Shown: positions 8,933 to 61,892 of the stretch, piece after piece
Position numbering within the stretch: the first letter of the stretch is position 1
How the letters are laid out: every line of letters begins with the position of its first letter
Assembly: GCA_000965745.1 (NCBI GenBank)
Contig: CP009479.1
Location: 1,746,457-1,810,456, forward strand
Source: an uncultured archaeon
GTDB lineage: Archaea; Thermoplasmatota; Thermoplasmata; Thermoplasmatales; Thermoplasmataceae
Direction of reading: 5' to 3'
DNA length: 64,000 bases
The notes under the pieces: model-generated
Databases searched by the model: none
The model's input: the letters and a program-made list of their open reading frames with translations, nothing else
Told to the model about the DNA's origin: nothing
Position numbers and translations under genes: made by a program

Positions 8933-10923
8933 CCGTCATTCCTCCTGAGATTGATTTCCCCAATCGAGCCGGCTGATGCATTCCAACCCTCGGGAACAAA
9001 GGTTGACGAATCGTAATCATCTATTGCGCATGGACCACTTACAACTTGATCCGGGGTCAAACCGGGCCTCGCATAGGTCATGAGTGAAATCTTCTCCCCT
9101 CTGATCACCGCGTCCCTCGAGGAAACCGGATTGCTTTCTGCAGGATCTGCTGACAACCTTGGCTTCTTTCTTTCTATTACTGCAAAAACCCTGATCGTCA
9201 CGATCTCAACCTCCCTTTCCAGGCTGAACCCGTAAGTCGAGAAATGCAGCTTAATGAATGACTCTTCAATGCTCGGCCTCGACGCATCGGATACCACGAC
9301 AGTCAGTTCAGATCCCTGGCCCCTGTACCTGCAGTCCGCATATCTGAGGAACCTGCTGCCGGGATGTTTTTCCGCCAGCTCCTGCTCGATATCTTGGAAA
9401 CCACTTTCAGTATCTTGAGGGAATGGGCGCCTCGACTCATACCTCCAATCCGAGAACAGGAGGCCAAGCGCACTGAACACGCCGGGTTTTGGCGCTATAA
9501 CCACTTTGGTTATGCCGAGCTCATCTGCTATTCGGGCGGCATGCTGTGGCCCAGCACCGCCGAAAGCCATCAATGTAAAATCGGAAGGGTCAAGTCCACG
9601 TTCAACAGTTACGATCCTTATTGCCCTCGCCATTTCAAGGTCTGCAAGGCTGATTGCTGATTCAGCAACTTCATACGGTTCCCCAAGGTCAGACAAACCT
9701 GAAATTGCATCCTGAAAGTCTAGTGACATCCGGCCTCCGAGCAGGCTGCTCCCGATCATCCCAAGCACAAGGTTTGCATCAGTGATTGTCGGTTCAGCAC
9801 CACCTTTCCCGTAGCATATCGGGCCGGGCTCTGCGCCCGCACTTACCGGTCCAATCTTCAATGCGCCTGCCCGATCCTTCCAAATGACAGTACCTCCGCC
9901 AGCTGAGACCTCAGCCAGGTCGACAAAGGGAAATCTCACCGGGTATCCTGAGCCTTTGGTCATCCTCCCATGGTGTGACTTGCCGCCGACTTCATATTCA
10001 GATGTGATGGAAACCTCGCCATTGACCACAGTTCCAGCCTTTGCTGTGGTGCCTCCCATATCGAAACTTATAACATTGCCGAGCCGCAGGATCCTTGAAA
10101 CTTCCGATGATGCAATGACTCCTGCAGCGGGGCCGGATTCCACGATTTGGACCGGTCTTGAAAAGACCTCGTTGATTGAAACCAGGCCTCCTGAACTTGC
10201 CATGACACTTATGCCCGGAGAGCCAAAATCCACAAGCTTCTTTTCAAGATTCCTGATGTATCTGGAAACAATAGGCATGAGCGCGGCATTGACGACTGCG
10301 GTGGATGCCCTCTCATACTCCCTCTGCTCAGGCGATATATGGGATGAGGTTGTGACATAGCTGAAATGTCGAGAAAGGACACTGTTAGCTTCCTCCTCAT
10401 TGGTGTTATTCAGATACGAGTTGATGAATGATACTGCAATCGAACCGGGAGGTTCCTTCTTTATCTCATCCGCCAATTTTTCAACATCCTCTGTTCTCAG
10501 TTTCTTTACAACTGCACCTTTTGAATCCACCCTCTCATCGATCTCGAATCTAAGGTTTCTCTGAACTATCTGCTTTGGCTTCTCGAAAAAAAGGTCATAG
10601 AGGTTTGGCCTGTTCTGCCTGCCTATTTCAACAACATCCCTGAACCCTCTCGTGGAAAGTAAAGCCACCCTGGGAAGCTCAAGCCCATGCTGGCCAAGAA
10701 GCGCGTTGGTTGCGATGGTGGTAGCATGTATCAGGTTTTCTAAATCTTGGCCGGCGTATTTTCCCAGCCCATTTGCCAATCCAACCTCAGGCTCTTTTGG
10801 AGTAGTAGGGACCTTGTAGTAACCTACAATCTCATTATTTTTCTGCAGGATAATGTCGGTGAATGTTCCGCCTATATCTACTGAGGCGGTAAAGCCTGCC
10901 ATGCCTGGAAAACGATGTTGCAC
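8923..10923 (-). CDS. hyuA: Hydantoinase A/oxoprolinase-type ATP-binding subunit HyuA
   Basis: Alpha subunit that binds ATP and activates the ring substrate, 666 residues. The acetate-kinase-like nucleotide fold shows as VDIGGTFTDI near the N-terminus and SFDMGGTTAKAG in the middle; VESGPAAGVIASS and GGAGPQHAARIADELGI are further family hallmarks. Annotated from a GTG (10921-10923); an ATG seven codons in (start 10902, giving MAGFTASVDIGG) puts the nucleotide motif nearer the terminus as in most homologues and may be the true start. A TTTAAA box lies at 10939-10944. First gene of the hyuA-hyuB unit. Confidence 0.88.
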   Translation of the reverse strand: MQHRFPGMAGFTASVDIGGTFTDIILQKNNEIVGYYKVPTTPKEPEVGLANGLGKYAGQDLENLIHATTIATNALLGQHGLELPRVALLSTRGFRDVVEIGRQNRPNLYDLFFEKPKQIVQRNLRFEIDERVDSKGAVVKKLRTEDVEKLADEIKKEPPGSIAVSFINSYLNNTNEEEANSVLSRHFSYVTTSSHISPEQREYERASTAVVNAALMPIVSRYIRNLEKKLVDFGSPGISVMASSGGLVSINEVFSRPVQIVESGPAAGVIASSEVSRILRLGNVISFDMGGTTAKAGTVVNGEVSITSEYEVGGKSHHGRMTKGSGYPVRFPFVDLAEVSAGGGTVIWKDRAGALKIGPVSAGAEPGPICYGKGGAEPTITDANLVLGMIGSSLLGGRMSLDFQDAISGLSDLGEPYEVAESAISLADLEMARAIRIVTVERGLDPSDFTLMAFGGAGPQHAARIADELGITKVVIAPKPGVFSALGLLFSDWRYESRRPFPQDTESGFQDIEQELAEKHPGSRFLRYADCRYRGQGSELTVVVSDASRPSIEESFIKLHFSTYGFSLEREVEIVTIRVFAVIERKKPRLSADPAESNPVSSRDAVIRGEKISLMTYARPGLTPDQVVSGPCAIDDYDSSTFVPEGWNASAGSIGEINLRRNDGWA

Positions 10924-11059
10924 TCTTTAATTTTGTTTTTTAAATGGACGGTGGCCGTATTGTATTCGACGAAATGTCGGGGGATTATGGAACAGTCTTA
11001 CCTGCAAATATATCCTGGTGTTCGTTATTTTGCTGCATCTGCGATTTCTGGTTGTTTCT

Positions 11060-11080
11060 GGAAACGAAAAATTTCGTTCC
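11060..11080. repeat. Short inverted repeat in the hyuA/membrane-protein intergenic region
   Basis: GGAAACGAAA followed by ATTTCGTTCC forms a near-perfect hairpin (one bulged base). It lies between divergently transcribed genes, about 70 bases before the membrane-protein start. It could be an operator or mRNA structure. The rest of 10924-11152 shows no convincing gene. Confidence 0.3.
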
Positions 11081-11152
11081 TTCTTGCCGATATACTAAAG
11101 TATAGGTTCAAACGATTACCAATTATAGCCGGAGTGACAGCGGGTAAGTAGC

Positions 11153-12064
11153 ATGAAGGAAAAAGAAAAGATGGCCAAACCTCAAAAGAAGGACAGGAAA
11201 CTATTCCGAAGGGTAATACTGATTTCAGTCATTTTTTCTGCGTGGGTACTTGTAGCTGAACATAGCTCTGCGGTGATATCAAACAGCCCATTCACCAATC
11301 TGCACTTACAGTTTATTATTTCTGGAACCCTTAATTTTATTGCAAATGAACTCAAAGGGGTAATACTCGCCATAGGTTTTGTGATTAATGGCCTTACCAC
11401 CACGCCTTCCAACCTGACTTATCTTGCCGGACCTATTGATATTCTGGGAATAATCCCACTGTATTCACTTGTAAAAAGGAAAACAGATTCCAGAGGGGGA
11501 GCCTTCTTTGCGTCCCTCTTGTTTCTTTTCTTCGCCGTGCTTATTGCACCCAGCTGGTTCAGCCTGCTTTACTTATCACTTTTCCCCACGTTGTTTATGT
11601 TTGGATTGGCCCTTTACGTCAAAAAGAGGAAGATTCTCTCATTCATTTTCATGTTCCTTGCAATGTTTGTTGTTCCAATAGCATCAGTGGCAGTGTTTGT
11701 ATTCGCAATCAACGTCTTCTACCATGGATGGGACTCCGGCAGGGAAAGTTTCTTCAGGAACAGTTACAGCATGGTTCTTGAAGGAGCTTCGGGATTCATA
11801 TTTGTTGTGTTTATGCTGAAATACTCATACATGTTTTTCCTAAACCCCTTTGCTGTCAAATCGGCGGATATGGAATACTTATCATTGTATAACACCCCTC
11901 TGAGCAACCCTGTGATTACCTATCCATTTGCAAATGTCATGCCCATAGTGCCGGAGTTTTCTAGCATCCCCAGCCTGGAACTGAGTGGCCTTGTGATAGC
12001 GGTCATAGCAGGAATGTTTGTATTGGTCAGGATAATTTCGAAGAAGGTCAGCGAAGGTGAATGA
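11153..12064 (+). CDS. Polytopic membrane protein of unknown function
   Basis: Unrecognised 303-residue protein. After a basic N-terminus (residues 1-20) there are about seven hydrophobic segments, including ones near residues 22-40, 60-80, 118-140, 160-190 and a last one near 278-298. Two features stand out: a long extracytoplasmic-looking stretch before the last helix and a very basic C-terminal tail (ISKKVSEGE). It has no visible catalytic motif. It is transcribed toward the first glycosyltransferase of the glycan island and ends 20 bases from that convergent gene. An O-antigen or lipid-glycan membrane step is possible but unsupported. Confidence 0.6.
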   Translation: MKEKEKMAKPQKKDRKLFRRVILISVIFSAWVLVAEHSSAVISNSPFTNLHLQFIISGTLNFIANELKGVILAIGFVINGLTTTPSNLTYLAGPIDILGIIPLYSLVKRKTDSRGGAFFASLLFLFFAVLIAPSWFSLLYLSLFPTLFMFGLALYVKKRKILSFIFMFLAMFVVPIASVAVFVFAINVFYHGWDSGRESFFRNSYSMVLEGASGFIFVVFMLKYSYMFFLNPFAVKSADMEYLSLYNTPLSNPVITYPFANVMPIVPEFSSIPSLELSGLVIAVIAGMFVLVRIISKKVSEGE

Positions 12065-12084
12065 GTCTCTGCAGAGTCATTCAT

Positions 12085-13167
12085 TTATTGTTGCTTCATG
12101 ATAGAAGGATCAACCTTTCTGTACACTTCCACCGTTGATTCTGCCATTCTTTCAATGGAATATTGCCGGGAAAATTCTATTAGATTAGATGGTTTATGCA
12201 AATTCCCCATGGCTTTCTCGATATCTACCCTTATAGCATCTTCTTCCAACTTTGTGAAGAAACCTTTATTACCCAAAGTTTCTTTGAAAACCTCCAGATC
12301 GTTGACCAAAACATTGGTTCCACAAGCCATAGCTTCAATACTCGTATATCCGAAACCTTCAGCTTCTGAGAGATGCACAAGTAGGTCAGCAGACGACATG
12401 TATTGCCTTAAAACTCCTTGCTCAACGGGACCAACCATTCTGACATTTGACTTATCTTTGATTAAAGATCTTAATTCGTCTCTTCTTGTTCCCCATGCGT
12501 TTACAGGACCAACATGAAGGACTTGATATTGCTCATCACCTCCAATGGCGCGGAATAGAAGGTCATATCTTTTCCTAGGGTTCAAATCCCCGACTGTAAG
12601 GATGTGTTTCTTCCCCTCTTCCCAAAGTGTGCTGTTGGGGTCTCTGTAGAATGCTTGGTGATCTATAGACTGGTTGACGACATCTATTCTATCTTTGTTT
12701 GCGCCTGCTATTTCTACAAGATCCTTTTTTCCGGATTGAGTAAAAGATATAATGTGCTCGATCCTGTTTATCTTATCAAAAATCATCTTGTTACCGCGTT
12801 CTCTGTAGTAGGTGCCTGAAAACATCTCCTTCAATTTGAGGGGTATGATGTCATGGACAGTTAATACATTGGTTCTTGGATGTATCACCTCCGGAGATAG
12901 TGAATGCACTATATTTCCTGCGGGTCTTTTTATCCTTGTTCCCACAACTAGGCTGAGATTCCCCAACATTGGTTTTCCTGCTATGCTATACTCTCTTTTT
13001 GTAACTTCAATGGGCTCAATAGCCACCCCTATACTTTCAAGCCCCTTCAGTAGTCGCTTTGAATATTCCCCAAGGCCTGTACCTGCGGAAGATCCTACTC
13101 TTGAAACTGAATAGATAAGGGAAATCAATGCCTTACCATGCATAAGTAGTAAATTAATTGTAACCAC
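12085..13167 (-). CDS. GT4 family glycosyltransferase
   Basis: Cytoplasmic retaining glycosyltransferase (GT-B fold), 360 residues, adding a sugar from a nucleotide donor to a growing glycan. The N-terminal acceptor domain contains GTGLGEYSKRL. The C-terminal donor domain has HILTVGDLNPRKRYDLL, and the hallmark E-x7-E element appears in HLSEAEGFGYTSIEAMACGT. GTG start at 13167, or an ATG eight codons in (13143, MHGKALISLIYSV), which gives the more usual N-terminus. It shares a divergent AT-rich promoter region with the epimerase at 13214. Donor and acceptor unknown. Confidence 0.82.
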   Translation of the reverse strand: MVTINLLLMHGKALISLIYSVSRVGSSAGTGLGEYSKRLLKGLESIGVAIEPIEVTKREYSIAGKPMLGNLSLVVGTRIKRPAGNIVHSLSPEVIHPRTNVLTVHDIIPLKLKEMFSGTYYRERGNKMIFDKINRIEHIISFTQSGKKDLVEIAGANKDRIDVVNQSIDHQAFYRDPNSTLWEEGKKHILTVGDLNPRKRYDLLFRAIGGDEQYQVLHVGPVNAWGTRRDELRSLIKDKSNVRMVGPVEQGVLRQYMSSADLLVHLSEAEGFGYTSIEAMACGTNVLVNDLEVFKETLGNKGFFTKLEEDAIRVDIEKAMGNLHKPSNLIEFSRQYSIERMAESTVEVYRKVDPSIMKQQ

Positions 13168-13183
13168 AATCAGTTATCACACT

Positions 13184-13193
13184 GTTTAATAAC
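13184..13193. promoter_or_regulatory. Divergent TATA element between GT4 and epimerase genes
   Basis: GTTTAATAAC reads as a TATA-like box on both strands. Its centre is 25.5 bases upstream of the ATG at 13214, the exact leaderless spacing, and it lies 21-45 bases upstream of the two possible starts of the divergent glycosyltransferase. Confidence 0.45.
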
Positions 13194-13213
13194 TTTACAA
13201 ATATCTGCAACCG

Positions 13214-13996
13214 ATGAAAATACTGGTCACGGGACATAGAGGATTCATTGGAGGGCATCTCTACTCAGAATTGAAAAAGCAAGGATACAATCCCGATGGA
13301 TTTGACCTTAATGATCAACTAGTTGACCAGAAATATGACTACATATTCCATTTTGCTGCCAGAGGCCTCATAAGGAAGTCAATTGAGAAGCCATTTGAAT
13401 ATTTCCTTGATGACCTTGGCCTTACCCTCAGGATTCTTGAAATTGCAAGAAAACATGGTAGTACACTTATATTTCCGACATCAGGTTCTGTTGCTGAACC
13501 GACCAATCCATACTCCCTTTCCAAGAAACAATCTGTAGAATGGATCAAGCTCTACGGAAAATTATACGGGCTCAAATACTACATACTGAAATTTTATAAT
13601 ATATATGGTGAAGGAAGTCGGAAAGGTGCTGTTTACCTTTTTACAAAAGCAGCACTAAATGGCGGTGATATTGTAGTATATGGAGACGGGGACCATATCA
13701 GGGACTTCTTCAACGTTAAAGACGTAGTGCGTGGATGCATGAAGATAATAGGCAATGAAATACATCCAGGCGAGTACGAATTCGGAAGCGGGATAGGAAC
13801 TTCAGTCAAAGAATTGATAGCCAAGGTACAGGAAGAAACAGGCAAGTTTCTCAAAATAGAGAAGAAAGAGTATATACTGCCAGAAGCGGAGAGGCTGGTA
13901 GCTTCTAATCCAATAATCTCTGACCCCCTACCTCTTTCAGAAGGTATAAGACAGGTTAAGGCATTCGTCGAAAAAGAAAGTAGCGATTCTGCTTGA
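13214..13996 (+). CDS. NAD-dependent sugar epimerase/dehydratase (SDR)
   Basis: Extended-SDR nucleotide-sugar enzyme, 260 residues, somewhat shorter than the usual 300-330. The NAD-binding TGHRGFIGGH is at residues 6-15; the active-site pair Tyr-x3-Lys is present in NPYSLSKKQS; later KFYNIYGEGSR and VVYGDGDHIRDFFNVKDV match the substrate-binding part of UDP-sugar 4-epimerases. Probably makes a UDP- or dTDP-sugar for the neighbouring glycosyltransferases. Leaderless promoter 25 bases upstream. Confidence 0.8.
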   Translation: MKILVTGHRGFIGGHLYSELKKQGYNPDGFDLNDQLVDQKYDYIFHFAARGLIRKSIEKPFEYFLDDLGLTLRILEIARKHGSTLIFPTSGSVAEPTNPYSLSKKQSVEWIKLYGKLYGLKYYILKFYNIYGEGSRKGAVYLFTKAALNGGDIVVYGDGDHIRDFFNVKDVVRGCMKIIGNEIHPGEYEFGSGIGTSVKELIAKVQEETGKFLKIEKKEYILPEAERLVASNPIISDPLPLSEGIRQVKAFVEKESSDSA

Positions 13997-14026
13997 TCCA
14001 TTAGGTTTATGAAAAACATTATTATC

Positions 14027-14082
14027 GGAGGGTGATTATGTATATTCAAGTAAAGAGGAGGAATACGACGGGGTTGGCATGA
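14027..14082 (+). other. Possible 14-codon leader ORF with strong ribosome-binding site
   Basis: A strong Shine-Dalgarno sequence, GGAGGGTGAT (14027-14036), precedes an ATG at 14038 that opens a 14-codon frame (MYIQVKRRNTTGLA). Its TGA overlaps the ATG of the following glycosyltransferase (ATGA at 14079-14082). A second GAGGAGG lies inside the mini-ORF. This may be a coupled leader peptide, or simply the ribosome entry region of the downstream gene. Confidence 0.3.
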
Positions 14083-14906
14083 CTGTCTGTATTGAAATTG
14101 TTGTCCTTAATGACCAGAGAATTTTCAAATGTCTTGAATCACTTAGAAACCAGGAAATGGTGCCAGATAGGATTCTGATAGCTGATGGAGGCTCGACAAG
14201 TGAATTTCTCAACGGTATCAAGAAAGAATTTTCCGATTTGCCGATCGATATTAAGGACCTGCCTGGACTTCCCGTCGAAACACGGTATAAATCTTTGAGA
14301 TATTTGTCTGAAGACATAACTGTATTTCTGGATTCTGATCAGTATGCTCCCAAGGAGTGGTTGAAGCTTATCATTTCACCGTTCTCATCATACAATCAAA
14401 ATCTCGCCTACACGGGAGGGCCAACAAAGCCCTATAAGAAGCCGACCAGCAAAATTGAAGAGTACCTCGCGTTGCTGGAGGAGCACATTTACGGAGACGA
14501 TATCTCAAAAAGCTTGACATATATTCCGCTTGGTAACACTGCTTGGCGCACGGAAGTGCTTCTAAACCTCAAATTTGACAAAAGACTCAAATTCGAGGCA
14601 GAAGATAACGATTTGGAAACACGCGCATACAATTCCGGTTATCATGGGAAATTTGTCAAAGAGGCTTGGGTGTGGCATGACAAAACCATCGATAAGAGTG
14701 TTTACAGGGCAATGAAAAAGAGGTATCGTTACTTAGTCGGCGCAGCCACGGTATTTTTAAAAAATGGAACCATTGGTCAAAGAAGTAAAGAGAGGAGGAA
14801 AATGATTAGGCACGCTTACGCCGTGTTGGAGTTATTACTGAAGCCCATTGCTTTCCTTCATGCTTTCGTGAGATGGAACATCCACATTAAGAAAATTGAA
14901 GAATAA
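14079..14906 (+). CDS. GT2 family glycosyltransferase
   Basis: Inverting glycosyltransferase (GT-A fold) of 275 residues. IADGGSTSEF and the metal-binding DxD-type motif VFLDSDQYAP mark the donor site; FEAEDNDLETRAYNSGY provides the acidic catalytic segment (the ED element). A C-terminal basic hydrophobic tail (residues 250-275) suggests membrane association. It starts at the ATGA overlap with a possible leader ORF and follows the SDR gene on the same strand by 82 bases. The sugar is unknown. Confidence 0.8.
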   Translation: MTVCIEIVVLNDQRIFKCLESLRNQEMVPDRILIADGGSTSEFLNGIKKEFSDLPIDIKDLPGLPVETRYKSLRYLSEDITVFLDSDQYAPKEWLKLIISPFSSYNQNLAYTGGPTKPYKKPTSKIEEYLALLEEHIYGDDISKSLTYIPLGNTAWRTEVLLNLKFDKRLKFEAEDNDLETRAYNSGYHGKFVKEAWVWHDKTIDKSVYRAMKKRYRYLVGAATVFLKNGTIGQRSKERRKMIRHAYAVLELLLKPIAFLHAFVRWNIHIKKIEE

Positions 14907-47679: not shown

Positions 47680-48404
47680 CTATAATTGAGATGGGATCAT
47701 GGCCAACATCTTTGATTGGAACTCATTCCATATTTCAATGGTCTTTGGGCTCCTCTTGAAGCCCATTCTGGACATTGAATCTTCATACATTTTAGTCCTG
47801 TGGACCTTCTCTACTGTTTTCTTAAGTTTCAGATCCAGTGATTTTGACGACACCTGCTTGAATAATTGCAAGACCTCTTGTTTGTTGATTTTATCTGCGA
47901 AATAGAAAAAAGGTCTGGGATATCCTGGTCTCTTCCAGATTGAGGTTTAAGTGCCCACATAACCTCTGGCCTTGCTATTTGTACAGGATTAGATGTTCTT
48001 CCTGTAATCGTGATCAATTGCTTCTTAATTGGTTGTCTGGTAATCCAGGGTTCGAGGATATCTACCTTAGCCTCTCGGTCACGGACTGCACCTGCAAGTA
48101 TGTCTAATGTCAACAAATCATTTGTTAGTCTGTAGACCCTTCCTGAATAATTCTGTGGATTAGGCATACTTGCCCTGTCTATTTCAAATTTAGAGCTTAG
48201 AAGCCAATTTATGATACGTTCTGATGATTCGAAGGGTATTACTAAGTCCAAGTCATTGGAGTATCTTGGCCTTCCGTAAGATGAGATTGCATATCCACCG
48301 ATTACTGTTCCACCAAATTGCCAAGGCCATGAATCTAGCAAGTTAAGAGCCTGTCTCTCTCGAATTTCAGTATCAATCCTCAATAAGATCCTCAGCTCCT
48401 GCAT
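47680..48404 (-). pseudogene. AbiEii-type nucleotidyltransferase toxin, frameshifted
   Basis: Type IV toxin component, a nucleotidyltransferase. The N-terminal 191 residues include QFGGTVIGGYAISSYGRPRY and the metal-binding SNDLDLVIPFE (D-x-D). At a run of six A (47906-47911, T on the coding strand) the frame is lost; adding one base restores a continuous C-terminus (FADKINKQEVLQLFKQVSSK and on to MIPSQL) to a stop at 47680-47682, giving about 242 residues. This is a mutation, a phase-variable homopolymer or a base-calling slip. It overlaps the antitoxin gene by 32 bases. Confidence 0.7.
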
Positions 48405-48936
48405 AGATCCCTGGATGTTCGCGTATCAGCTTAATCGTCATCTCTTTGGAGATTACCGGTTCTCCTTCTATTTCAACATATTCCAGTTTATCAGCGGGAT
48501 GAAGTTCCACGTATGCGCCTATACTCTTAGATCCTCTTGTTGAGATGCCATGTGATTTGAGATAGTCCACCCAATTATTGTGATCAGAAGTCAGGACAAC
48601 GAGATCAAAAGTGTGCGCAAATGCATTCGGATACACCCTATACTTTCCGTTTGTCCATAGCTCCACTGCGTTAGACCCGGTCCATGCCTTAGGCCAGGGC
48701 GCATTAAGCAATAGCCGGCTTACCCTATTCCATTCAGTCTTCCTAAAGTCAGGACGATCCTCAATTTTTAAGCACCTATAGGTTCCATGACCAACTCGTT
48801 CAACGATACCCCTGAACTTCAATTCTGAAAGCAACTTTCCAGGTCTGGAATTACCGGTCAGTTCTGTTACTTCCTTTGTTGTAAACTCGTCCTCGCCAAA
48901 CGCATACGTTAAAACGTCGGCATAAGTCATGCCCAT
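48373..48936 (-). CDS. AbiEi-like antitoxin/transcriptional regulator
   Basis: Antitoxin partner of 187 residues. The N-terminal winged helix is FTTKEVTELTGNSRPGKLLS followed by ELKFRGIVERVGHGTYRCL. The C-terminal half has the AbiEi features of a short beta-rich domain. It precedes the nucleotidyltransferase and overlaps it by 32 bases, the common antitoxin-first order. A palindrome right at its start codon probably serves as its operator. Confidence 0.7.
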   Translation of the reverse strand: MGMTYADVLTYAFGEDEFTTKEVTELTGNSRPGKLLSELKFRGIVERVGHGTYRCLKIEDRPDFRKTEWNRVSRLLLNAPWPKAWTGSNAVELWTNGKYRVYPNAFAHTFDLVVLTSDHNNWVDYLKSHGISTRGSKSIGAYVELHPADKLEYVEIEGEPVISKEMTIKLIREHPGIYAGAEDLIED

Positions 48937-50287: not shown

Positions 50288-50932
50288 ATTAAAATTCCAA
50301 TAGCAAATCAACTCAAAAAGAGACATCAGGTCGAAATTGCGGAATTGCAGGATGAAGTTATGTCAATAGCTTATAGCGTCTGTGAAGACATTGTTTTCCA
50401 CGGAGGAACTGCGATATGGAGATGTTTCTCCGGGAAAAGATTTTCGGAAGACCTTGACTTCTATTCCCGTACTTTTCCCGATGCTTCTGAAGAATTTGTA
50501 AAAATGGTTAAATCACATGGTCTCACAATCAGCAAATTGAAAGATACTGGCAACGTTATATGTCCTTCAATTTCCAACAGCAGAGCAACTGTTAAGATCG
50601 AAGTCAACCATGTTATTGATGTTAAGGGAGTGGAGACTGCATATGAGCTAGTTGATGGATCCTCTATAGAGATTATATGCCTCTCTCCTGAAAATTTAGT
50701 TATTGAGAAAATTGCGGCATATCGTGATAGAAAGTTTATCCGGGACCTTTATGATATTTACCATTTAACGGGCTATGGTGTAGAAATTGAAGCTGTAAAG
50801 AAGGAGCTTATAGAATTTCTTTCACATACCGACAAGCCTGTCGACGAGGGAGTTCTTAAAAGCATTGTTTATCTTAGTCTGCCACCATCCTATGAGAAGA
50901 TGATAAGCACCATACGCAGGAGGGTTTCATGA
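50288..50932 (+). CDS. AbiEii-type nucleotidyltransferase toxin, second module
   Basis: Type IV toxin, nucleotidyltransferase. IVFHGGTAIWRCFSGKRFSE followed by DLDFYSR (D-x-D) is the active site. From an in-frame TTG at 50345 it has 195 residues, but reading upstream gives KIPIANQLKKRHQVEIAELQ, the normal start of this family, back to an ATT codon at 50288; there is no ATG or GTG between the stop at 50276 and 50345. So an ATT start or a lost ATG is suspected. The stop overlaps the antitoxin start (ATGA). Toxin-first order, unlike the first module. Confidence 0.72.
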   Translation: MKIPIANQLKKRHQVEIAELQDEVMSIAYSVCEDIVFHGGTAIWRCFSGKRFSEDLDFYSRTFPDASEEFVKMVKSHGLTISKLKDTGNVICPSISNSRATVKIEVNHVIDVKGVETAYELVDGSSIEIICLSPENLVIEKIAAYRDRKFIRDLYDIYHLTGYGVEIEAVKKELIEFLSHTDKPVDEGVLKSIVYLSLPPSYEKMISTIRRRVS

Positions 50933-51519
50933 GGTACATTAGTGATTTTTTACATCATTTTTCTGAAAAGCCTGCGTTTAGTGCAAATGAAGCGAGACTT
51001 TTTCTTAAACGGAGGGGTGCATCCGAAGGTTACCACAAACTGCTTTTAGAGAAGTTATACTCTTCTGGAAGGATATACCGCATTACACGTGGGCATTACA
51101 CGTTCTATGAAGAGGTTCAACACGTGGGTTTTGCCTTTTCGCCTTTTTATTATGGGCTTGAAGATGCGCTCTCTCTGTTGAATTTGTGGGAGCAGGAAAC
51201 TAACCCAGTAGTCATTACCCCAAGAAAGGTCAGAAGTGGAATCCGAGAATTTCGCGGAAGAAATTACGTTGTCAGGAGGATAGATAGGTCGATGTTTTTC
51301 GGATATATTTATATCAAATATGAGAAATTCTACATCTCAGTATCTGCCCCTGAAAAGACCCTCATTGATCTCTTCTACTTCAGGACTTACATCGAGAATG
51401 ACACATATGATGAGGTCTTTAAAAACATCGATGCCACAAGGTTCAAAGATTATCTTGAAAATGTTCCTGGATGGTTGAAATCCAAGTTGACAGGGGTTCT
51501 TGATGATTCTGGAGGTTGA
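50929..51519 (+). CDS. AbiEi-type antitoxin, second module
   Basis: Winged-helix antitoxin of 196 residues: FSANEARLFLKRRGASEGYH and KLYSSGRIYRITRGHYTF form the N-terminal DNA-binding part; the AbiEi C-terminal domain contains FYYGLEDALSLLNLWEQE and ISVSAPEKTLIDLFYFR. ATG overlaps the toxin stop by four bases. Not obviously the same family branch as the first-module antitoxin. Likely autoregulates through the CATGGTTATAC sites. Confidence 0.72.
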   Translation: MRYISDFLHHFSEKPAFSANEARLFLKRRGASEGYHKLLLEKLYSSGRIYRITRGHYTFYEEVQHVGFAFSPFYYGLEDALSLLNLWEQETNPVVITPRKVRSGIREFRGRNYVVRRIDRSMFFGYIYIKYEKFYISVSAPEKTLIDLFYFRTYIENDTYDEVFKNIDATRFKDYLENVPGWLKSKLTGVLDDSGG

Positions 51520-52155: not shown

Positions 52156-52545
52156 ATGTTTTGGCTATACCTTGGAAAATGCTGCCTTACCATGGTACTG
52201 TTAGTGCTGCTCGTTTCAACAATACTCCTCTCTGCTTTGGCAATGTCTGTGCATTCATACCCGAAGTACAGAATAATAATTAATGCCTGATCTCCACGTG
52301 GTTGCCAGGATCACAGGTACTTGTTGAAAACGGGCCGTTACAGAAGACAAAGCTCTCGCTGCCTGCCGATATGGCTTACGACAAAATGGTTGTTTACATG
52401 AAATAGATGATGGAGAACAACCTTATACAGGAGAATGCCGCTCACATCGACCTGAATGAAGATGGAGTAAGAACCTGTGAAGAGGTAGTTTCATGGATCG
52501 CGCAGTACGTGGGCAGACTGTGCTTTCCAAGGGAAAGATGATGGC
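52156..52545 (+). pseudogene. Decayed gene: signal-peptide ORF plus broken downstream frame
   Basis: A 44-codon ORF (52156-52290) starts MFWLYLGKCCLTMVLLVLLV and looks like a signal or membrane segment. After its stop another frame is open for about 40 codons (SQVLVENGPLQKTKLSLPAD, AYDKMVVYMK), stops at a TAG, then resumes (ENNLIQENAAHIDLNEDGVR, EEVVSWIAQYVGRL). These look like protein with ordinary composition, broken by stops and a frame change. No family is recognised. Confidence 0.3.
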
Positions 52546-52630
52546 CATCTATAGAAAGAAAGCAAAACTTCACCCGGTCATTCATAAAAATTTGTTTATT
52601 AACTGTATAGGGATCATATCCTGTTGCTTC

Positions 52631-53029
52631 ATGAGTGCTGATGATGGGGTCAAACTACTAATGCAGAGGTCAGAGAGATTTCTGGAGAATGTGAAACATA
52701 ACTTTGAGATAGGATTTCTGGATATTGCGGCTTTCAGCCTCGAACAATCGATCGAATTATTTCTCAAGTCAAAGGTACTTGAGAAGGCCGGAGATTTTCC
52801 TCATACGCAAAATATCAGAACACTAATGCAGACACTCTCTGAGCAATCAAGTCAGCGGTGCAGTGAGATCGTTAAATCCTATCTTGACAAGCATGGAATA
52901 ATACTCGGGGCGATTCAGGATGCATATATTACATCAAGGTATTTTGCGATCAATATTGAAAAAAATGATCTGGACAAGATGATCCAGGTGGTTCAGGAGA
53001 TAATCCATGACCTTAGACATGTTTGCTAG
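52631..53029 (+). CDS. HEPN-domain protein (HEPN-MNT pair)
   Basis: HEPN toxin-type protein of about 132 residues. The start is set at the ATG at 52631 (MSADDGVKLLMQRSERFLEN) because longer readings to 52493 add unrelated sequence. FLDIAAFSLEQSIELFLKSK and QDAYITSRYF are HEPN (PF05168-type) landmarks; the second holds the conserved Arg-Tyr. A TTTATTAAC box lies about 33 bases upstream. The next gene overlaps its end by 23 bases. In such pairs HEPN is often an RNase and MNT its antitoxin. Confidence 0.75.
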   Translation: MSADDGVKLLMQRSERFLENVKHNFEIGFLDIAAFSLEQSIELFLKSKVLEKAGDFPHTQNIRTLMQTLSEQSSQRCSEIVKSYLDKHGIILGAIQDAYITSRYFAINIEKNDLDKMIQVVQEIIHDLRHVC

Positions 53030-53327
53030 ATACTCGAAGCGACGCAAGGAAGCATTTAGTCGTCTCAATGAAAACCTCCAGAAAGTAAAATCTATTGTGG
53101 TAATGGAAGATCCATCAGCTAAAATCTATCTTTTCGGCTCCGTTGCCAGGGGAAACTACAATATGGCAAGCGATATAGATATACTCATAGTCTCCAGGGA
53201 TTATGTCAAAGCAATACGCAAAGCCCTGATAGAAGCAGGTTTTGGGGAGCCGTACGAATTTCACATCAGGTCACCAAGAGATGCTCAAACATACTTTCGT
53301 CATGTAAAAGATATTAGGAAAATTTAG
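53007..53327 (+). CDS. MNT-domain nucleotidyltransferase (antitoxin of HEPN-MNT pair)
   Basis: Minimal nucleotidyltransferase of 106 residues with the diagnostic IYLFGSVARGNYNMASDIDI (G-S-x10-D-x-D). It can add AMP to the HEPN partner and so neutralise it, as shown in related systems. Starts inside the HEPN gene. Length is right for this family. Confidence 0.78.
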   Translation: MTLDMFARYSKRRKEAFSRLNENLQKVKSIVVMEDPSAKIYLFGSVARGNYNMASDIDILIVSRDYVKAIRKALIEAGFGEPYEFHIRSPRDAQTYFRHVKDIRKI

Positions 53328-55650: not shown

Positions 55651-56235
55651 TTAGCTAGAGATGTATGTCATGGATACTAGTATCTCACCATTCAGCGCAG
55701 CACCATCGTAGGGTGGCGTGAAGAATCCAATGTAAATCGTTGTGCTCCCGTCGACAGCGACTGAGTATGAGTCAGCCGATGTCAGAGAGAACGCCGTTAC
55801 ACCGGGGTTCACGACTGTGGGTATCTCGCCAGGGAGTCCCTGGTAATTGAAGTCGCTGAAGCTCAGTGGGGCCAGTGAGAAATACATGTATGATCCTGTA
55901 ACGAACGGTGAACTCACGGTTGAGTTAAAGTAAAACATACCAGACCCAAGAGTGGGTGCGAAGTTGATCTGCATCACGTTTATGATGAAGGTCGACTGGT
56001 TGCTTACTGTGCCAAACTGGAGATCGCCCATTGCGTTATGCGTTCCCGTGTATGGGTTCCATGAGATAGATCCGTCTGCTGTCTGGAAGTTGGATCCCGG
56101 TGCAAGCCAGAATGCGGCATTGTTATGGGTTCCATTTACTCCTACCTGGCCTGTTATCATCACATCTGCTACGGCTACCGCTGGAAGGATGGCCGATACT
56201 GCTGCAATTAACAACAGGGTTAATCTTCTGTTCAT
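55651..56235 (-). CDS. Secreted beta-rich protein, paralog C
   Basis: 194 residues with a Sec signal peptide (MNRRLTLLLIAAVSAILPAV, cleavage likely after AVA, mature start DVMITGQV). Shares with its two neighbours the DVMITG start, the (L/I)xPGxN(Y/F) and (A/S/G)W(N/M)P motifs, and a C-terminal FYIGF-x-PP-type motif (here IYIGFFTPPYDGAALNGEIL). Predominantly hydrophobic beta pattern; no cysteines. Strong SD AGGAGTGAT. Last of three genes, 21 bases after paralog B. Probably a cell-surface or fibre subunit. Confidence 0.7.
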   Translation of the reverse strand: MNRRLTLLLIAAVSAILPAVAVADVMITGQVGVNGTHNNAAFWLAPGSNFQTADGSISWNPYTGTHNAMGDLQFGTVSNQSTFIINVMQINFAPTLGSGMFYFNSTVSSPFVTGSYMYFSLAPLSFSDFNYQGLPGEIPTVVNPGVTAFSLTSADSYSVAVDGSTTIYIGFFTPPYDGAALNGEILVSMTYISS

Positions 56236-56256
56236 TTTATATCACTCCTTGTTCCC

Positions 56257-56874
56257 TCATGATAGTGCCACGAATTGGCCCGTGAGCAGTGCGCTAGATC
56301 CTGCATAGTATCCAGGTGGCAGAACAAATCCAATGTAGAACGTCTGTGCCGGGCTGAAATTGGTTATCAGCAGGTGCGGGTTCTCACTGAGATCAACAGC
56401 TACTACGGTCGCAAGTGAAGATCCATCAACTGATATCGGTGTACCGACATAGTGTGTTATGGCTGTCCCTATAAGAACTGCAAAGGTAATCGTGGAAGTC
56501 GAGATGACCATTTCAGTTCCGACCGGGAAGTTTGATGAAGACACGTTAAGGTACAAACCCATGAACGACGATGGAGCTAAAGCATTACTAATAGTAATGT
56601 TCAGGTCAATCACGTTTATCATGGAGGTCTGCACGTAGTAACTTCCCTGGAGGTCCAGTGTTCCCATTTCTCCGCCAAGCACATCAGGCATCCATCCTAT
56701 GGAGTTTGTTGCGTTGGCTGCGGCGTAGTTCGGTCCAGGCTGGAATTCAAACGCAGTGTGATGATGTTTGTTCTCTAGTGAAATCTGTCCTGTTATCATT
56801 ACGTCAGCCACAGCTACCGCTGGAAGCAGTGTTGCAATGGCTGCAACCAATAACAGTGTCAATTTTCTGTTCAT
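56257..56874 (-). CDS. Secreted beta-rich protein, paralog B
   Basis: 205 residues; signal peptide MNRKLTLLLVAAIATLLPAV then AVADVMITGQ. AFEFQPGPNYAAA, NSIGWMP, MINVIDLNITISN and FYIGFVLPPGYYAG align with paralogs A and C. The extra length lies in the middle. SD GGTGA six bases before the ATG. Lies 48 bases after paralog A. Sequons NVSSSN and NATNS suggest glycosylation. Confidence 0.7.
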   Translation of the reverse strand: MNRKLTLLLVAAIATLLPAVAVADVMITGQISLENKHHHTAFEFQPGPNYAAANATNSIGWMPDVLGGEMGTLDLQGSYYVQTSMINVIDLNITISNALAPSSFMGLYLNVSSSNFPVGTEMVISTSTITFAVLIGTAITHYVGTPISVDGSSLATVVAVDLSENPHLLITNFSPAQTFYIGFVLPPGYYAGSSALLTGQFVALS

Positions 56875-56922
56875 TTTTTTTCACCTAACCAAAAATAATG
56901 GTGTTTTTTAGGACACCACTAT

Positions 56923-57498
56923 TTAATGCGCTATGAAAGTGCCAGTTATGGTACCAGTTGCTCCAGCATATGATCCAGGGGGCAGGTAGAAGCTCATGTA
57001 GTATGTTGTTGTTCCACCGGGGAATGGCCCGTTGAACTGGAAGCTTGCGCTGTTGATCGACTGTCCGCCGAGAAGACCTGGGAGTGAGTGCACATCAACC
57101 GTGTTGTTTGTAACCCAAACCATTGCTCCAGCGGGGAAGTTTCCAGTGAAGTTCACATACAGTGTTCCGGTAACTCCTGCGCCTATTGTCACGTTCAGGT
57201 CAAGAACATTTGCGAGTGCTGTTGTCTGGTTGTTTATGCCTTCAAGGTCGAATGATGCCATTGGTGCGAGTTGTCCGGGTTCTACTGATGCGGGCTGCAT
57301 GGGGTTCCACGCAATGGCTCCGGCTGCGTAGGCTGCGGGGTAGTTAGGTCCTGGTTGGATCTCAAACACGGGTGTGTTCTGAGTACCAACAATGCTTACA
57401 TTTCCTGTTATCATCACATCGGCTACAGCAACTGCGGGAAGAATTGCTGCAACTGTTGCGAGTAACAACAGGGTCATCTTTCTATTCGTACTTTTCAC
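56923..57498 (-). CDS. Secreted beta-rich protein, paralog A
   Basis: 191 residues from a GTG (57496-57498): MKSTNRKMTLLLLATVAAIL then PAVAVADVMITGN. FEIQPGPNYPAA, GAIAWNP, ANVLDLNVTIGAGVTGTLYV and YYMSFYLPPGSYAGATG mark the family. The paralogs begin Met-Asn-Arg; here the matching codon is ACG (57487-57489), five bases after the same GGTGA ribosome site, so the start is either the GTG inside that site or the ACG itself. Promoter-side AT-rich region upstream; first gene of the unit. Confidence 0.68.
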   Translation of the reverse strand: MKSTNRKMTLLLLATVAAILPAVAVADVMITGNVSIVGTQNTPVFEIQPGPNYPAAYAAGAIAWNPMQPASVEPGQLAPMASFDLEGINNQTTALANVLDLNVTIGAGVTGTLYVNFTGNFPAGAMVWVTNNTVDVHSLPGLLGGQSINSASFQFNGPFPGGTTTYYMSFYLPPGSYAGATGTITGTFIAH

Positions 57499-57691
57499 CT
57501 CTCTATTTTTGGCTTAATGCCTGATTACATTATGAGCGGTGAAATATATTTAATGGGTGGAATAAAAAATACATATAAGATCTTCTAATAGTTTGTAGGA
57601 ATAAGAAATTCCTACATCTTATATACCTGTAAAGTTGAAATGCCGGCCCGGGCTCCCGCTGGATTGAAAATAAATGGAAAAAGCAACCAGT

Positions 57692-58486
57692 TCACTGAAA
57701 AGCTGTTGTGAAGAGATTGAAAAACAGAATGAATGCGGTAATCCCATAGGAGGCGAATGACGTGTATGCAGACGCTGAAAATGCAGGCTTCCTTTTCATG
57801 TAAGTTGCTACGGTGTAGACGGCCATGCACACTATTACTACGGCAGAATATACAATCGCCAGGTGTATGAGGCCGTTTATGCCGGTGATCCATGACATGG
57901 AGGGCGCATAGAAGGCAGCAAACGTTAAGGCTCCTGCTGAAACGAGCATTATTGCCATCAATCTCTTGGTTACGCTTATCCTGCTCACGACTGTCGTCAG
58001 TACTGCTATGCCGAGGACTGCAGCCAGAATAACGTATATGGAATAGGTTACTGTCGACGGAAGCGAAGGCAGCAGCAGGTTTAGTTTCTTGACCGGGGAA
58101 AGCAGGAGAGATACGAGTATCCACAAATCGAGTGTGAGGAGTATGAGCTGAGTGTCCGCGACAATTCCTTTACCCCCCGTATTGTGGACGAAATCTGAGA
58201 AAGGGGCTGTTGCTATGCTTGGTTCTGCATCTGGGACAGAATTCTCTGAATTCTCAGGCAGAGTACTTTCCATTAACCCATCCAGGGTGGACCGTTCCCC
58301 CTCTTGATGCTCAATCCTGTCTTTTTCCAGCCCATCACCATGGCCACCGGGAGGGGCAAGCAGGAATTCAAGTTTTTCCTCTTCAGGGCTGAGCTTTCTG
58401 AATGTTATGAAAAAATATATGGCAACTACTCCACCTATTACAAACTGTGGAAGAAAACTGATCAATGCAGCAAGATCGAATTGCAT
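57692..58486 (-). CDS. Multi-spanning membrane protein, unknown
   Basis: 264 residues. One N-terminal hydrophobic segment (residues 8-27), a charged linker (about 30-110, with acidic and Pro/Gly stretches such as LLAPPGGHGDG), and then about five hydrophobic segments (118-255). It lies between the secreted paralogs and the signal peptidase on the same strand, so it may belong to their export or assembly unit. No family recognised. Confidence 0.55.
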   Translation of the reverse strand: MQFDLAALISFLPQFVIGGVVAIYFFITFRKLSPEEEKLEFLLAPPGGHGDGLEKDRIEHQEGERSTLDGLMESTLPENSENSVPDAEPSIATAPFSDFVHNTGGKGIVADTQLILLTLDLWILVSLLLSPVKKLNLLLPSLPSTVTYSIYVILAAVLGIAVLTTVVSRISVTKRLMAIMLVSAGALTFAAFYAPSMSWITGINGLIHLAIVYSAVVIVCMAVYTVATYMKRKPAFSASAYTSFASYGITAFILFFNLFTTAFQ

Positions 58487-58557
58487 AGCGAACGTTGATC
58501 ATATCCCCAAGCCGGCATATAAACTATTCCAAAAAATTGAAAAATATTTTGAAGCGG

Positions 58558-59352
58558 CTACTTCTTTTCCTTTTTGAACAACCTGTCATAAGGGAATACA
58601 GAAGCCGCGATGACAATCACAATAAGTATGCCCAGGTACAGGTATGCGTTGTTTGGAACCTCGTTGTACTGGGTCCAGCTGCCACTGAATCTCAGTATAT
58701 TAAGCTTTATCAGTCCGACCCATGGTATCTGACCGTAGGAGGTTCCCACGACCTTATCGGGCTGTACCGGGTTGAAGCCGAATACGTTCTGGTCTGAAGC
58801 ACTGTATGCATTCTGGCTGGAATTGTAGAGGGGGCTGTGTGCAAGATTGTAATCGCCTACGGTTACGTAGCCGTCCTTGCCGACAAAGTGGTTCAGGTAG
58901 ACGATGAGATTTCTGTGGGTAAAGCCAACATTATCGATGATCACAGCGTTTGAAGTAATTTTGATCCAGCTTTGGCCATGATCACCTGCGACAATAGGAG
59001 TTGAACCGTTCCAGGACAGGTAAAACATGGCCCTGTGTATGATTATCCTGCCATTCGGGTCATGGTAGAGTATAACGTTTCCAAACTCGCCATAGGTGCT
59101 GTAGCCTGAATCTCTTCCCTGAACATAAGTTACCACATCTCCGGTAGAGTTGTGGATATTCTTGGCGAAAACAATGTCCCCGGTGTTTATGGTCCCATAG
59201 GTCCAGTTCTGTGAATGTTCCATGCTCTCTGACTCCACAACATACAGGGGGGGCCATACGTCAGAGTATGCAATGACAGAGGCAACGCTTGCCAGAACAA
59301 CTACTGCAATTGCGATAGAGGCAATCTTTCTTGCTTTCACGGTACATCGCAT
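58558..59352 (-). CDS. Archaeal-type signal peptidase I (S26B)
   Basis: Membrane protease of 264 residues that removes signal peptides on the outer face. N-terminal anchor (about 10-30), then catalytic Ser43 in VVESESMEHSQNW, His106 in GRIIIHRAMFYLS (His in place of bacterial Lys), Asp residues in VAGDHG (D124) and YVTVGDYNLAHSP (D167), and a C-terminal anchor near 240-255. Larger than many S26B members (about 180-200) because of an insert and the C-terminal helix. It is encoded near three signal-peptide-bearing paralogs, which makes a dedicated role plausible. Separate promoter region likely. Confidence 0.82.
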   Translation of the reverse strand: MRCTVKARKIASIAIAVVVLASVASVIAYSDVWPPLYVVESESMEHSQNWTYGTINTGDIVFAKNIHNSTGDVVTYVQGRDSGYSTYGEFGNVILYHDPNGRIIIHRAMFYLSWNGSTPIVAGDHGQSWIKITSNAVIIDNVGFTHRNLIVYLNHFVGKDGYVTVGDYNLAHSPLYNSSQNAYSASDQNVFGFNPVQPDKVVGTSYGQIPWVGLIKLNILRFSGSWTQYNEVPNNAYLYLGILIVIVIAASVFPYDRLFKKEKK

Positions 59353-59476: not shown

Positions 59477-60100
59477 TTATTCAACACTGAGTGTGGACTG
59501 GCGGTGTTTGCTGTAGTTATACTCGACATTTTCAAAGGCATTGTTTATTTTGCGAGCAGTAGTGAACAGGTCCACAAGTATCAGAAGCAGCACTGCCGAG
59601 AATATTATGGTTATACCGAAAACAATACCATCCAGCTGGAATATGATGCTGTCGGTGAATGCAAACTGGGTAGCAGTAACCAGGACGTATTCAGTTATGG
59701 CTATCATTACTCCGTAGATTATCATGAGTTTCCTGATCATTGATGAGTCATGCTTGACCCTCTCGAGGTCTCTGCTTGGCTGCAATGCGTTTTTGAGGGA
59801 CGACTCGAGCTTTTCCATATCCTTCATGGACATCATTGGCATATCGTCCGGTTTGGTCTCTTCACCCATTTCCTCCGCAATCTCCCTTTCACTGAAGAAC
59901 AACTGCGTATTGAGAGAGCTGTTCCTCAGGAACATTGAAAGCATGTTCTTGGTGAATACCATGTTTGAGAGTTTTTCGATAGTCTTGACCTTGCTTTCAA
60001 GTCGTGAAATGTAGTCCTTGAATCCTTTTCCGGATATGTTGTATATCAAGAATGATACGACAAGTATCAGGGTAGGGATTATGTAAAGATACAGCAACAT
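59477..60100 (-). CDS. Membrane protein with coiled-coil-like middle
   Basis: 207 residues. One N-terminal hydrophobic segment (residues 2-22), a long helical soluble middle (about 25-125) that includes a Met- and acid-rich stretch (EEMGEETKPDDMPMMSMKDM), and two hydrophobic segments near 128-148 and 152-178. It follows the ribbon-helix-helix-like gene by 51 bases on the same strand and may be co-expressed. It could anchor the cytoplasmic filament system at the membrane; that is speculation. Confidence 0.5.
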   Translation of the reverse strand: MLLYLYIIPTLILVVSFLIYNISGKGFKDYISRLESKVKTIEKLSNMVFTKNMLSMFLRNSSLNTQLFFSEREIAEEMGEETKPDDMPMMSMKDMEKLESSLKNALQPSRDLERVKHDSSMIRKLMIIYGVMIAITEYVLVTATQFAFTDSIIFQLDGIVFGITIIFSAVLLLILVDLFTTARKINNAFENVEYNYSKHRQSTLSVE

Positions 60101-60645: not shown

Positions 60646-61635
60646 TTATTGTCCTATTTCCCTCTTTGCTGCATCCTTGTAGCCAAGGGCGTTTGCAAAG
60701 GGAAGATCCTCTTCGGGAATTTTAATAAGTGCACCCGGAGCCAGTGATTCGAGCTTTTCGCCAATAAGGGCCGCTCCCCCGCCAACCGGTATGAGTGCAG
60801 TGACACGGTCAAGCTCACTTCTCAGGTTCGCCCTCATGTTATCCACGATCCTGTCTGCAAGTTCCTGAAGGAATGGTGCAGCGAATTCCGGGCCACCCAC
60901 TTCTCTCTGCTTGAACATGACGCTTTCCGATATCGACTCGCGTGCAACATCAGTCGGGACAACAAACCCGGTTTCCCTGGCGATGGCCTTTGCAATTTCT
61001 GAAACTGAGTCTCCGACTCCGGTTGTTATGCTGAACGACATCTGGAGAACAGGCTCCATGGTAGAAAGGTTCAATGTAAGAACATCAGTTGTTCTGGATC
61101 CCACATCAATTACTGTTGCAAGGCCCTTCTGCTGTTTCATTAGACCTTTCTCTATCATATAGAGTGCAGCTCCTACTCCCTGTGGCCTCATGACAAGCCT
61201 GTCTATGGAAAGCTGCCTGACTTCCCCGGACAGTGAAGTGATCTTGATGCTCCTGCCTTCGAGAGCCTTTCTGGATTCGGCCAGTTCCTTGTCAAAGGTT
61301 CCCAGGGGAGTCCCGCTTCCAAGAACCACCTGGGTGGGAGATCCATCAGCTCCTGCACCGCTTGCCCAAAGGGCTGCCCCGATAAGGGGGAGTGAAGCAT
61401 TGTCTGCGAGTCTTCCATCGCCCAGAGGCTCCCTTGCATTTGGCCCATTCGCATCTTCTCCAAATGCAAAATGGTCTGTGCCGTCATCTACACTTAATAT
61501 GGGAATATTCCCACCAATCCCCCACGATGTTCCATCATGCTTTGCCCACCGGGAAGGGAAGCTTATTCTCTCATCATTTACACTGATTACTTTTGTATCT
61601 CCATAACCAAGGTCTATACCAACAACTACTGACAA
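60646..61635 (-). CDS. Actin-like (ParM/Ta0583-type) filament protein
   Basis: Actin-fold ATPase of 330 residues. Phosphate 1 loop: VVVGIDLGYGDTKVISV at the N-terminus; SFPSRWAKHDGTSWGIGG follows; connect and phosphate 2: ATVIDVGSRTTDVLTLNLS; adenosine region: IPVGGGAALIGEKL; C-terminal ANALGYKDAAKRE. The order and wording match, from memory, Thermoplasma acidophilum Ta0583, which forms ParM-like filaments. The start is set at TTG 61633-61635 because GGAGGTG (61643-61649) sits seven bases upstream and the family motif then begins at once; longer readings to 61668 are unlikely. Confidence 0.88.
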   Translation of the reverse strand: MSVVVGIDLGYGDTKVISVNDERISFPSRWAKHDGTSWGIGGNIPILSVDDGTDHFAFGEDANGPNAREPLGDGRLADNASLPLIGAALWASGAGADGSPTQVVLGSGTPLGTFDKELAESRKALEGRSIKITSLSGEVRQLSIDRLVMRPQGVGAALYMIEKGLMKQQKGLATVIDVGSRTTDVLTLNLSTMEPVLQMSFSITTGVGDSVSEIAKAIARETGFVVPTDVARESISESVMFKQREVGGPEFAAPFLQELADRIVDNMRANLRSELDRVTALIPVGGGAALIGEKLESLAPGALIKIPEEDLPFANALGYKDAAKREIGQ

Positions 61636-61642
61636 CTCTTTA

Positions 61643-61649
61643 CACCTCC
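61643..61649 (-). promoter_or_regulatory. Strong Shine-Dalgarno site deciding the actin start
   Basis: GGAGGTG on the minus strand, seven bases before TTG at 61635. It makes the TTG the likely start and shows that this transcript has a leader, unlike many genes here. Confidence 0.6.
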
Positions 61650-61892
61650 AACTGGAAATATCTTCCACAACTCTTCCATAACTAGTTGAGTCACTTATTG
61701 ACTATCAGAGCCTTTTCGTATTAAAATCTTTACATCGACTGCAGGCGAAATTTTTGTCTAGACACGTTGAAAACTGCGGTTTCCCGTGAAATTTTTTTTC
61801 TTCATGAAGCCGTGTTTATCTGATTCCCACATTATTAGCCTTTCTATTTTGATATTTTTAATAGTTTTGAAGCACTACCACAGGGAGGATAA

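What the first reader, a model, noticed from the sequence alone, without database searches (positions are those of the whole stretch)
55651..59352. Three tandem secreted paralogs with a nearby signal peptidase: candidate archaeal fibre or matrix locus
Three genes encode 191-205-residue proteins with near-identical signal peptides, a shared mature start (DVMITG), conserved PG-x-N and W-N-P motifs, no cysteines and a beta-rich pattern. An S26B signal peptidase and a multi-spanning protein lie upstream on the same strand. Known fact: TasA-type biofilm proteins and archaeal bundling pili are encoded as paralogs next to a dedicated SipW-like signal peptidase and assemble by strand exchange. The match here is in layout and size, not in recognised sequence, so this could be a new branch or an unrelated surface protein.
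Basis: partly seen in the sequence, partly recalled or inferred. Interest (0 to 1): 0.65.

Follow-up and report, generated by a model that had tools for sequence, protein, structure and literature searches.

The report
Candidate thread-like fibre locus in Thermoplasmatales
Three side-by-side genes for secreted proteins, with an extra signal peptidase and a membrane protein, look like the building blocks of a surface fibre linked by exchanged strands; this kind of fibre has been solved in two other archaea, and in the papers I could search it is not described from these wall-less acid-loving archaea.

Summary
In detail: three tandem paralogs (window 55651-57498, minus strand), a 6-TM protein and an S26B signal peptidase. 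The paralogs match no Pfam, NCBIfam, PHROG or PDB sequence. An AlphaFold model of the mature third paralog, built on 26 relatives (pLDDT 84, pTM 0.79), has as its best two matches among 350,542 PDB chains the two archaeal donor-strand fibres, AbpA (7ueg) and the Sulfolobus thread (7pnb). The scores are modest (E 6e-4 and 9e-4, TM about 0.5; carbohydrate-binding modules follow at 2e-3). The mature N-terminus (DVMITG) is among the best conserved segments but is unplaced in the monomer model, as a donor strand would be. The family occurs in 35 of 117 genomes of the order. In six genomes an extra signal peptidase sits beside it; five of these enzymes form one clade apart from the housekeeping ones, while the window's own copy is not placed. 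Most members lack an adjacent peptidase; the 6-TM protein recurs more often. Most likely: subunits of a new branch of thread/AbpA-like donor-strand fibres. Not shown: polymerisation, strand insertion, peptidase specificity. It is not a TasA (PF12389) member by sequence.

The parts
56923..57498 (-). Paralog B3 (191 aa; mature part 165 aa from 57420), proposed major fibre subunit
   Evidence: ORF; model pLDDT 84.4 with best PDB matches AbpA and Saci_0406; third-highest codon adaptation of 94 non-ribosomal ORFs; best conserved of the three between genera, 72%
56257..56874 (-). Paralog B2 (205 aa), proposed fibre subunit
   Evidence: homologous to B3 (39%); orthologue in same order in another genus, 65-70%
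55651..56235 (-). Paralog B1 (194 aa), proposed fibre subunit
   Evidence: homologous to B3 (33%); orthologue in same order in another genus, 62-65%
57403..57420 (-). First six mature residues of B3 (DVMITG), proposed start of the donor strand
   Evidence: mean information 2.95 bits versus 1.96 in residues 15-165, fifth of 160 six-residue windows; residues 1-3 and 5-14 have pLDDT below 50 in the monomer model
57692..58486 (-). 6-TM membrane protein, proposed assembly or anchoring factor
   Evidence: hydropathy; family recurs next to the fibre family in many genomes, including a second cluster in this genome
58558..59352 (-). S26B type I signal peptidase, the second copy in this genome
   Evidence: TIGR02228 weak match; other copy at G000:C1:1137855-1138679 beside mevalonate-3-kinase
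59477..60100 (-). 207-aa protein with about 3 hydrophobic segments; likely accessory gene of the cluster
   Evidence: its family was found in the fetched loci only beside the signal peptidase or fibre genes: window, G007, G111 twice
56893..56924 (-). 12-bp perfect RNA hairpin at the stop codon of B3, possible partial terminator or processing site
   Evidence: fold z-score -2.76; not conserved in relatives, where the gap is about 10 bp
57542..57553 (-). TATA-box-like TTAAATATATTT upstream of B3
   Evidence: read directly from the sequence; not tested

Best explanation
The three paralogs are subunits of an extracellular fibre built by donor-strand complementation. Each preprotein goes through Sec; a type I signal peptidase, probably the one encoded beside them, cuts after AVA and frees an N-terminal strand beginning DVMITG. 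That strand leaves its own jelly-roll domain and fills the groove of the next subunit, giving a thin head-to-tail fibre like AbpA pili or Sulfolobus threads. B3 is probably the major subunit, B1 and B2 are specialised or minor ones, and a distant homologue (P2a, about 10 kb past the window end in this genome, beside the fibre genes in relatives) is a candidate starter or cap. The 6-TM protein is a candidate assembly or anchoring factor. Shown: homology, gene layout, fold similarity of the model, conservation of the free N-terminus, an extra linked peptidase in six genomes. Inferred: polymerisation, strand insertion, all roles.
For: AbpA and Saci_0406 are ranks 1 and 2 of 350,542 PDB chains for a good model. 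The conserved N-terminus is not packed in the monomer and alternates hydrophobic residues at 2, 4, 8, 10. Saci_0406 is likewise cut to a mature N-terminal Asp (LVA/DV), has an N-terminal donor strand and a same-fold neighbour proposed as a cap (PMC9715654). Extra signal peptidases: of seven genomes with two peptidase loci, six have one beside the fibre genes, and five form a 100/99 clade apart from the housekeeping copies. The order TM-B3-B2-B1 is kept in another genus with one-to-one orthologues. Three to five N-glycosylation sequons per mature window paralog and almost no Lys/Arg fit an exposed acid-stable surface protein.
Against: The fold scores are modest: TM about 0.5, and carbohydrate-binding beta-sandwiches follow closely (E 2e-3). 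There is no sequence match to AbpA, thread or TasA. A peptidase lies beside the family in only 6 of the 35 genomes as far as seen. The window peptidase itself is not placed in the linked clade (AU p 0.142 does not reject it, but gives no support). The P2a model is poor (pLDDT 63) and its fold matches are uninformative. No multimer could be predicted. The fibres seen in two Thermoplasmatales by cryoEM were type IV pili and archaella (PMC12448462).
Confidence: 0.6

Rival explanations
1. The proteins are non-filamentous components of the dense exterior protein layer that replaces the S-layer in Thermoplasmatales, carrying a beta-sandwich domain that binds glycans or neighbours.
For: A roughly 20 nm unordered protein layer without known composition was seen on two Thermoplasmatales (PMC12448462). 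CBM4-type carbohydrate-binding modules rank just after AbpA and thread in the fold search. Acid-stable, sequon-bearing composition fits any surface protein.
Against: The conserved but unplaced N-terminal strand has no obvious role in a simple lectin. A linked signal peptidase lineage and a P2a homologue resemble fibre systems more. No C-terminal membrane anchor was found by hydropathy.
Confidence: 0.22
2. A true TasA-type biofilm matrix system, descended directly from the TasA/SipW operon.
For: Layout: paralogs, signal peptidase and accessory gene together; AbpA, described as TasA-like, is the best fold match.
Against: PF12389 (Peptidase_M73, TasA/camelysin) finds nothing in this genome, and nothing over its cut-off in 61 genomes although it rings in Bacillus subtilis. 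TasA is not in the top 50 fold matches. The peptidase is missing beside most family members.
Confidence: 0.1
3. Unrelated secreted proteins whose nearness to the signal peptidase is accidental.
For: Most family members are not beside a peptidase; the window peptidase is not clearly in the linked clade; the window genes have separate TATA-like motifs and are not one tight operon.
Against: Extra peptidases occur almost only beside this family (six of seven genomes) and five share ancestry apart from housekeeping copies.
Confidence: 0.08

Closest known systems
Archaeal thread of Sulfolobus acidocaldarius (Saci_0406, PDB 7pnb; cluster arCOG10215)
   Same: Second-best fold match; type I signal peptide cut to a mature N-terminal Asp-Val; N-glycosylation sequons; in the thread a same-fold neighbour is a putative cap (PMC9715654), and here relatives carry P2a.
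   Different: No sequence match; the conserved YYY of thread N-termini is absent; three parallel paralogs; a linked signal peptidase and 6-TM protein; Asp1 is replaced by Ala, Ser, Gly or Thr in the wider family, so the thread isopeptide bond cannot be general.
AbpA archaeal bundling pilus of Pyrobaculum calidifontis (PDB 7ueg)
   Same: Best fold match of 350,542 PDB chains; described as a TasA-like donor-strand fibre (paper not held; from memory and from citations in PMC9715654 and PMC10151520).
   Different: No sequence match; different archaeal phylum; TM about 0.5 only.
TasA / TapA / SipW of Bacillus subtilis
   Same: Secreted beta-rich subunits, accessory protein and signal peptidase gathered together.
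   Different: Not in PF12389; TasA not among the top 50 fold matches; peptidase linkage not universal; 6-TM companion.
Type IV pili and archaella of Thermoplasmatales (PMC12448462)
   Same: Surface filaments in the same order.
   Different: Those have class III signal peptides and a helical core; here the proteins have a type I-like signal peptide and a beta-sandwich, with no ATPase or platform protein recognised alongside.

Membership tests
Archaeal thread (Saci_0406-like) | Thread-type beta-sandwich head | tested here: met
   rank 2 in the PDB fold search, E 8.9e-4, TMq 0.56; modest score
Archaeal thread (Saci_0406-like) | Sequence relationship to Saci_0406 | tested here: not met
   family profile finds no thread chain at E up to 10
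Archaeal thread (Saci_0406-like) | Type I cleavage giving N-terminal Asp followed by conserved YYY | tested here: not met
   AVA/DVMITG: Asp present in the window paralogs, YYY absent; thread motif from PMC9715654
Archaeal thread (Saci_0406-like) | N-terminal strand donated to the next subunit | tested here: inconclusive
AbpA bundling pilus | AbpA-type fold | tested here: met
   rank 1 in the PDB fold search, E 6e-4, TMq 0.49; modest score
AbpA bundling pilus | Sequence homology to AbpA | tested here: not met
   no 7ueg hit at E up to 10
TasA / camelysin (PF12389) | Match to PF12389 | tested here: not met
   no match in this genome, none over cut-off in 61 genomes; control rings in B. subtilis
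TasA / camelysin (PF12389) | Dedicated signal peptidase beside the subunit genes | tested here: inconclusive
   an extra peptidase is adjacent in six genomes, five in one clade, but absent in most; window copy unplaced
Type IV pilin | Class III signal peptide and hydrophobic N-terminal helix in the mature protein | tested here: not met
   type I-like AVA cleavage site; no helix at the mature N-terminus

The most novel reading that the evidence does not exclude
Probability: 0.35. Interest if true: 0.78.

Novelty: new variant of a known kind. Interest (0 to 1): 0.6.

Why it matters
Threads are reported as conserved among some crenarchaea and their assembly machinery is unknown (PMC9715654); cryoEM of two Thermoplasmatales showed type IV pili and archaella and no S-layer (PMC12448462). 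A donor-strand fibre in this order would extend the kind to another archaeal phylum and to cells with no S-layer to guide or anchor it. The recurring 6-TM protein and the linked signal peptidase give concrete assembly candidates. One genome carrying the cluster is 1,564,906 bp, the size I recall for cultured T. acidophilum, so it can be tested. The mature window proteins have no Lys or Arg (B1, B3) or one Lys (B2), so trypsin-based proteomics would miss them.

Tried and rejected
No Pfam, NCBIfam or PHROG match for the paralogs; Pfam on all 26 family members gave only chance hits. PDB sequence search with family profiles found nothing real. The viral structure library gave no match at E 0.001 or better, so a viral origin is not supported. 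The P2a model was too weak to use. A single origin of all six fibre-linked peptidases is neither shown nor excluded; 43-row and 33-row trees leave the window copy on a long branch. Weak class-level hits (E 1e-4 to 1e-8) show no signal peptidase of this family nearby in the loci read and were not counted as members. The hairpin after B3 is not conserved in relatives.

Full report
WHAT IS THERE. The window lies at G000:C1:1746457-1810456 of a 2.23 Mb single-contig genome of a Thermoplasmata archaeon (signal-peptidase relatives are all Thermoplasmatota). On the minus strand, in order of transcription, stand: a 207-aa protein with about three hydrophobic segments (59477-60100), an S26B signal peptidase (58558-59352), a 264-aa protein with six predicted membrane segments (57692-58486) and the three paralogs B3 (56923-57498), B2 (56257-56874) and B1 (55651-56235). 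The paralogs share AVA/DVMITG, PG-x-N and no cysteine.

THE FAMILY. No library names it. A profile of the three finds a fourth copy in this genome at C1:1482233 and homologues in relatives. An iterated search links a second, more distant type (P2), next to the first in many loci. A 26-member profile finds the family in 35 of 117 genomes of the order, and weaker matches in the class. Two layouts recur. One is P1-P2-6TM, found for example in this genome at about C1:1480533-1482646. The other, with the DVM-type N-terminus, has P1, P2a, the 6-TM protein and in some genomes a signal peptidase. In G015, G102 and G103 the order TM-B3-B2-B1 followed by P2a is kept, and each paralog has its own orthologue (62-72% identity versus 28-44% between paralogs). 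The triplication is therefore older than the genus split, and the three have been kept distinct. In this genome P2a lies at C1:1820706-1821233, about 10 kb past the window end on the other strand.

THE FOLD. A model of mature B3 on the 26-row alignment has pLDDT 84.4 and pTM 0.79, with about nine strands. Against 350,542 PDB chains the first two matches are 7ueg, the Pyrobaculum bundling pilus AbpA (E 6e-4), and 7pnb, the Sulfolobus thread Saci_0406 (E 9e-4); then come CBM4 carbohydrate-binding modules at 2e-3. That two solved archaeal donor-strand fibres come first is striking, but the scores are modest and the general beta-sandwich is common. The second clue is independent of the ranking: the first six mature residues are among the best conserved stretches (2.95 versus 1.96 bits, fifth of 160 windows), yet residues 1-3 and 5-14 are below pLDDT 50. 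Conserved but not packed in the monomer is what a strand given to the neighbour would look like. In the thread, cleavage after Ala leaves an N-terminal Asp and the strand completes the next subunit (PMC9715654). Here the window paralogs also start Asp-Val, but the YYY that marks thread relatives is absent, and the wider family starts with Ala, Ser, Gly or Thr, so the thread's Asp isopeptide bond cannot be general.

THE SIGNAL PEPTIDASE. All archaeal type I signal peptidases are S26B (background knowledge), so class alone says nothing. This genome has two: the window copy and one at C1:1137855-1138679 beside mevalonate-3-kinase. I looked at 77 genomes in two searches. Seven genomes have two peptidase loci. 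In six (G000, G007, G108, G109, G110, G111) one copy lies beside fibre-family genes. In the seventh (G082) the second copy begins with the same sequence as a peptidase from another bin (L009) at the same contig position and is probably contamination. Five fibre-linked peptidases form a clade with 100/99 support, apart from the housekeeping copies of G108-G111. The window copy is on a long branch: the data do not reject it as a member (AU p 0.142) nor as a duplicate of its own other enzyme (p 0.535). So a linked peptidase lineage exists in Thermoplasmatales, but for this window 'dedicated' rests on position and on being a second copy. Most of the 35 genomes have no adjacent peptidase as far as the fetched flanks reach.

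OTHER COMPANIONS. The 6-TM protein family is the commonest neighbour, with exceptions in G005 and G023, where it is elsewhere. The 207-aa family was met in the fetched loci only beside peptidase or fibre genes.

EXPRESSION HINTS. B3 has the third-highest codon adaptation of 94 non-ribosomal ORFs (0.734; most ribosomal genes 0.70-0.81; B1 0.684, B2 0.649). A TATA-like TTAAATATATTT stands before B3, and a 12-bp hairpin sits at its stop codon (z -2.76), not conserved in relatives. These fit B3 as the major subunit but do not prove it.

MECHANISM. Most likely, subunits are exported, cut by the linked or the housekeeping peptidase, and polymerise by donor-strand complementation, with P2a or one paralog starting or capping the fibre and the 6-TM protein helping assembly or anchoring. 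Probability about 0.6. Fibre formation, strand insertion and roles are inferred. The chief rival is a non-filamentous part of the exterior protein layer seen in this order (PMC12448462). No thread-like fibre from Thermoplasmatales turned up in the papers I could search.

MEMBERSHIP. It works like a thread/AbpA system if the prediction is right. It cannot be filed as a Saci_0406, AbpA or TasA member by sequence. I therefore rate it a new variant of a known kind.

Noticed in passing
window 57487-57498: B3 start is odd: homologues begin ATG (MNRK), but here the homologous codon is ACG, and the upstream GTG overlaps the ribosome-binding site GAGGTGA.
   Followed up: partly
window 55654-57420: Mature B1 and B3 have no Lys or Arg and B2 has one Lys, so trypsin digestion yields almost no peptides; standard proteomics would miss these proteins.
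   Followed up: partly
window 60646-61668: Archaeal actin homologue (PF21522 MreB-like_C, PF17989 ALP_N) three genes upstream of the signal peptidase on the same strand; link to the fibre genes unknown.
   Followed up: no
window 50345-51519: AbiEii-type nucleotidyltransferase toxin gene (PF08843) overlapping a probable partner gene; a second pair with a weak AbiEi_4 match lies at 47829-48936.
   Followed up: partly
window 52493-53327: HEPN (PF05168) and nucleotidyltransferase (PF01909) overlapping gene pair, a likely HEPN/MNT toxin-antitoxin.
   Followed up: partly
L094 (G004:C76) 8137-14621: Five fibre-family copies in a row with the same signal peptide, with an apparently transposase-like gene between the last two: recent local expansion.
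   Followed up: no
L101 9231-11252 and L102 9189-11189: In two genomes the second gene of the P1-P2 pair is replaced by a secreted protein of about 670 aa, possibly a large tip or adhesin subunit.
   Followed up: no
L170 1-3780 (G108): Large secreted protein with a pro-kumamolisin activation domain lies near the fibre and peptidase cluster; a similarly large gene is in the same place in G109.
   Followed up: no
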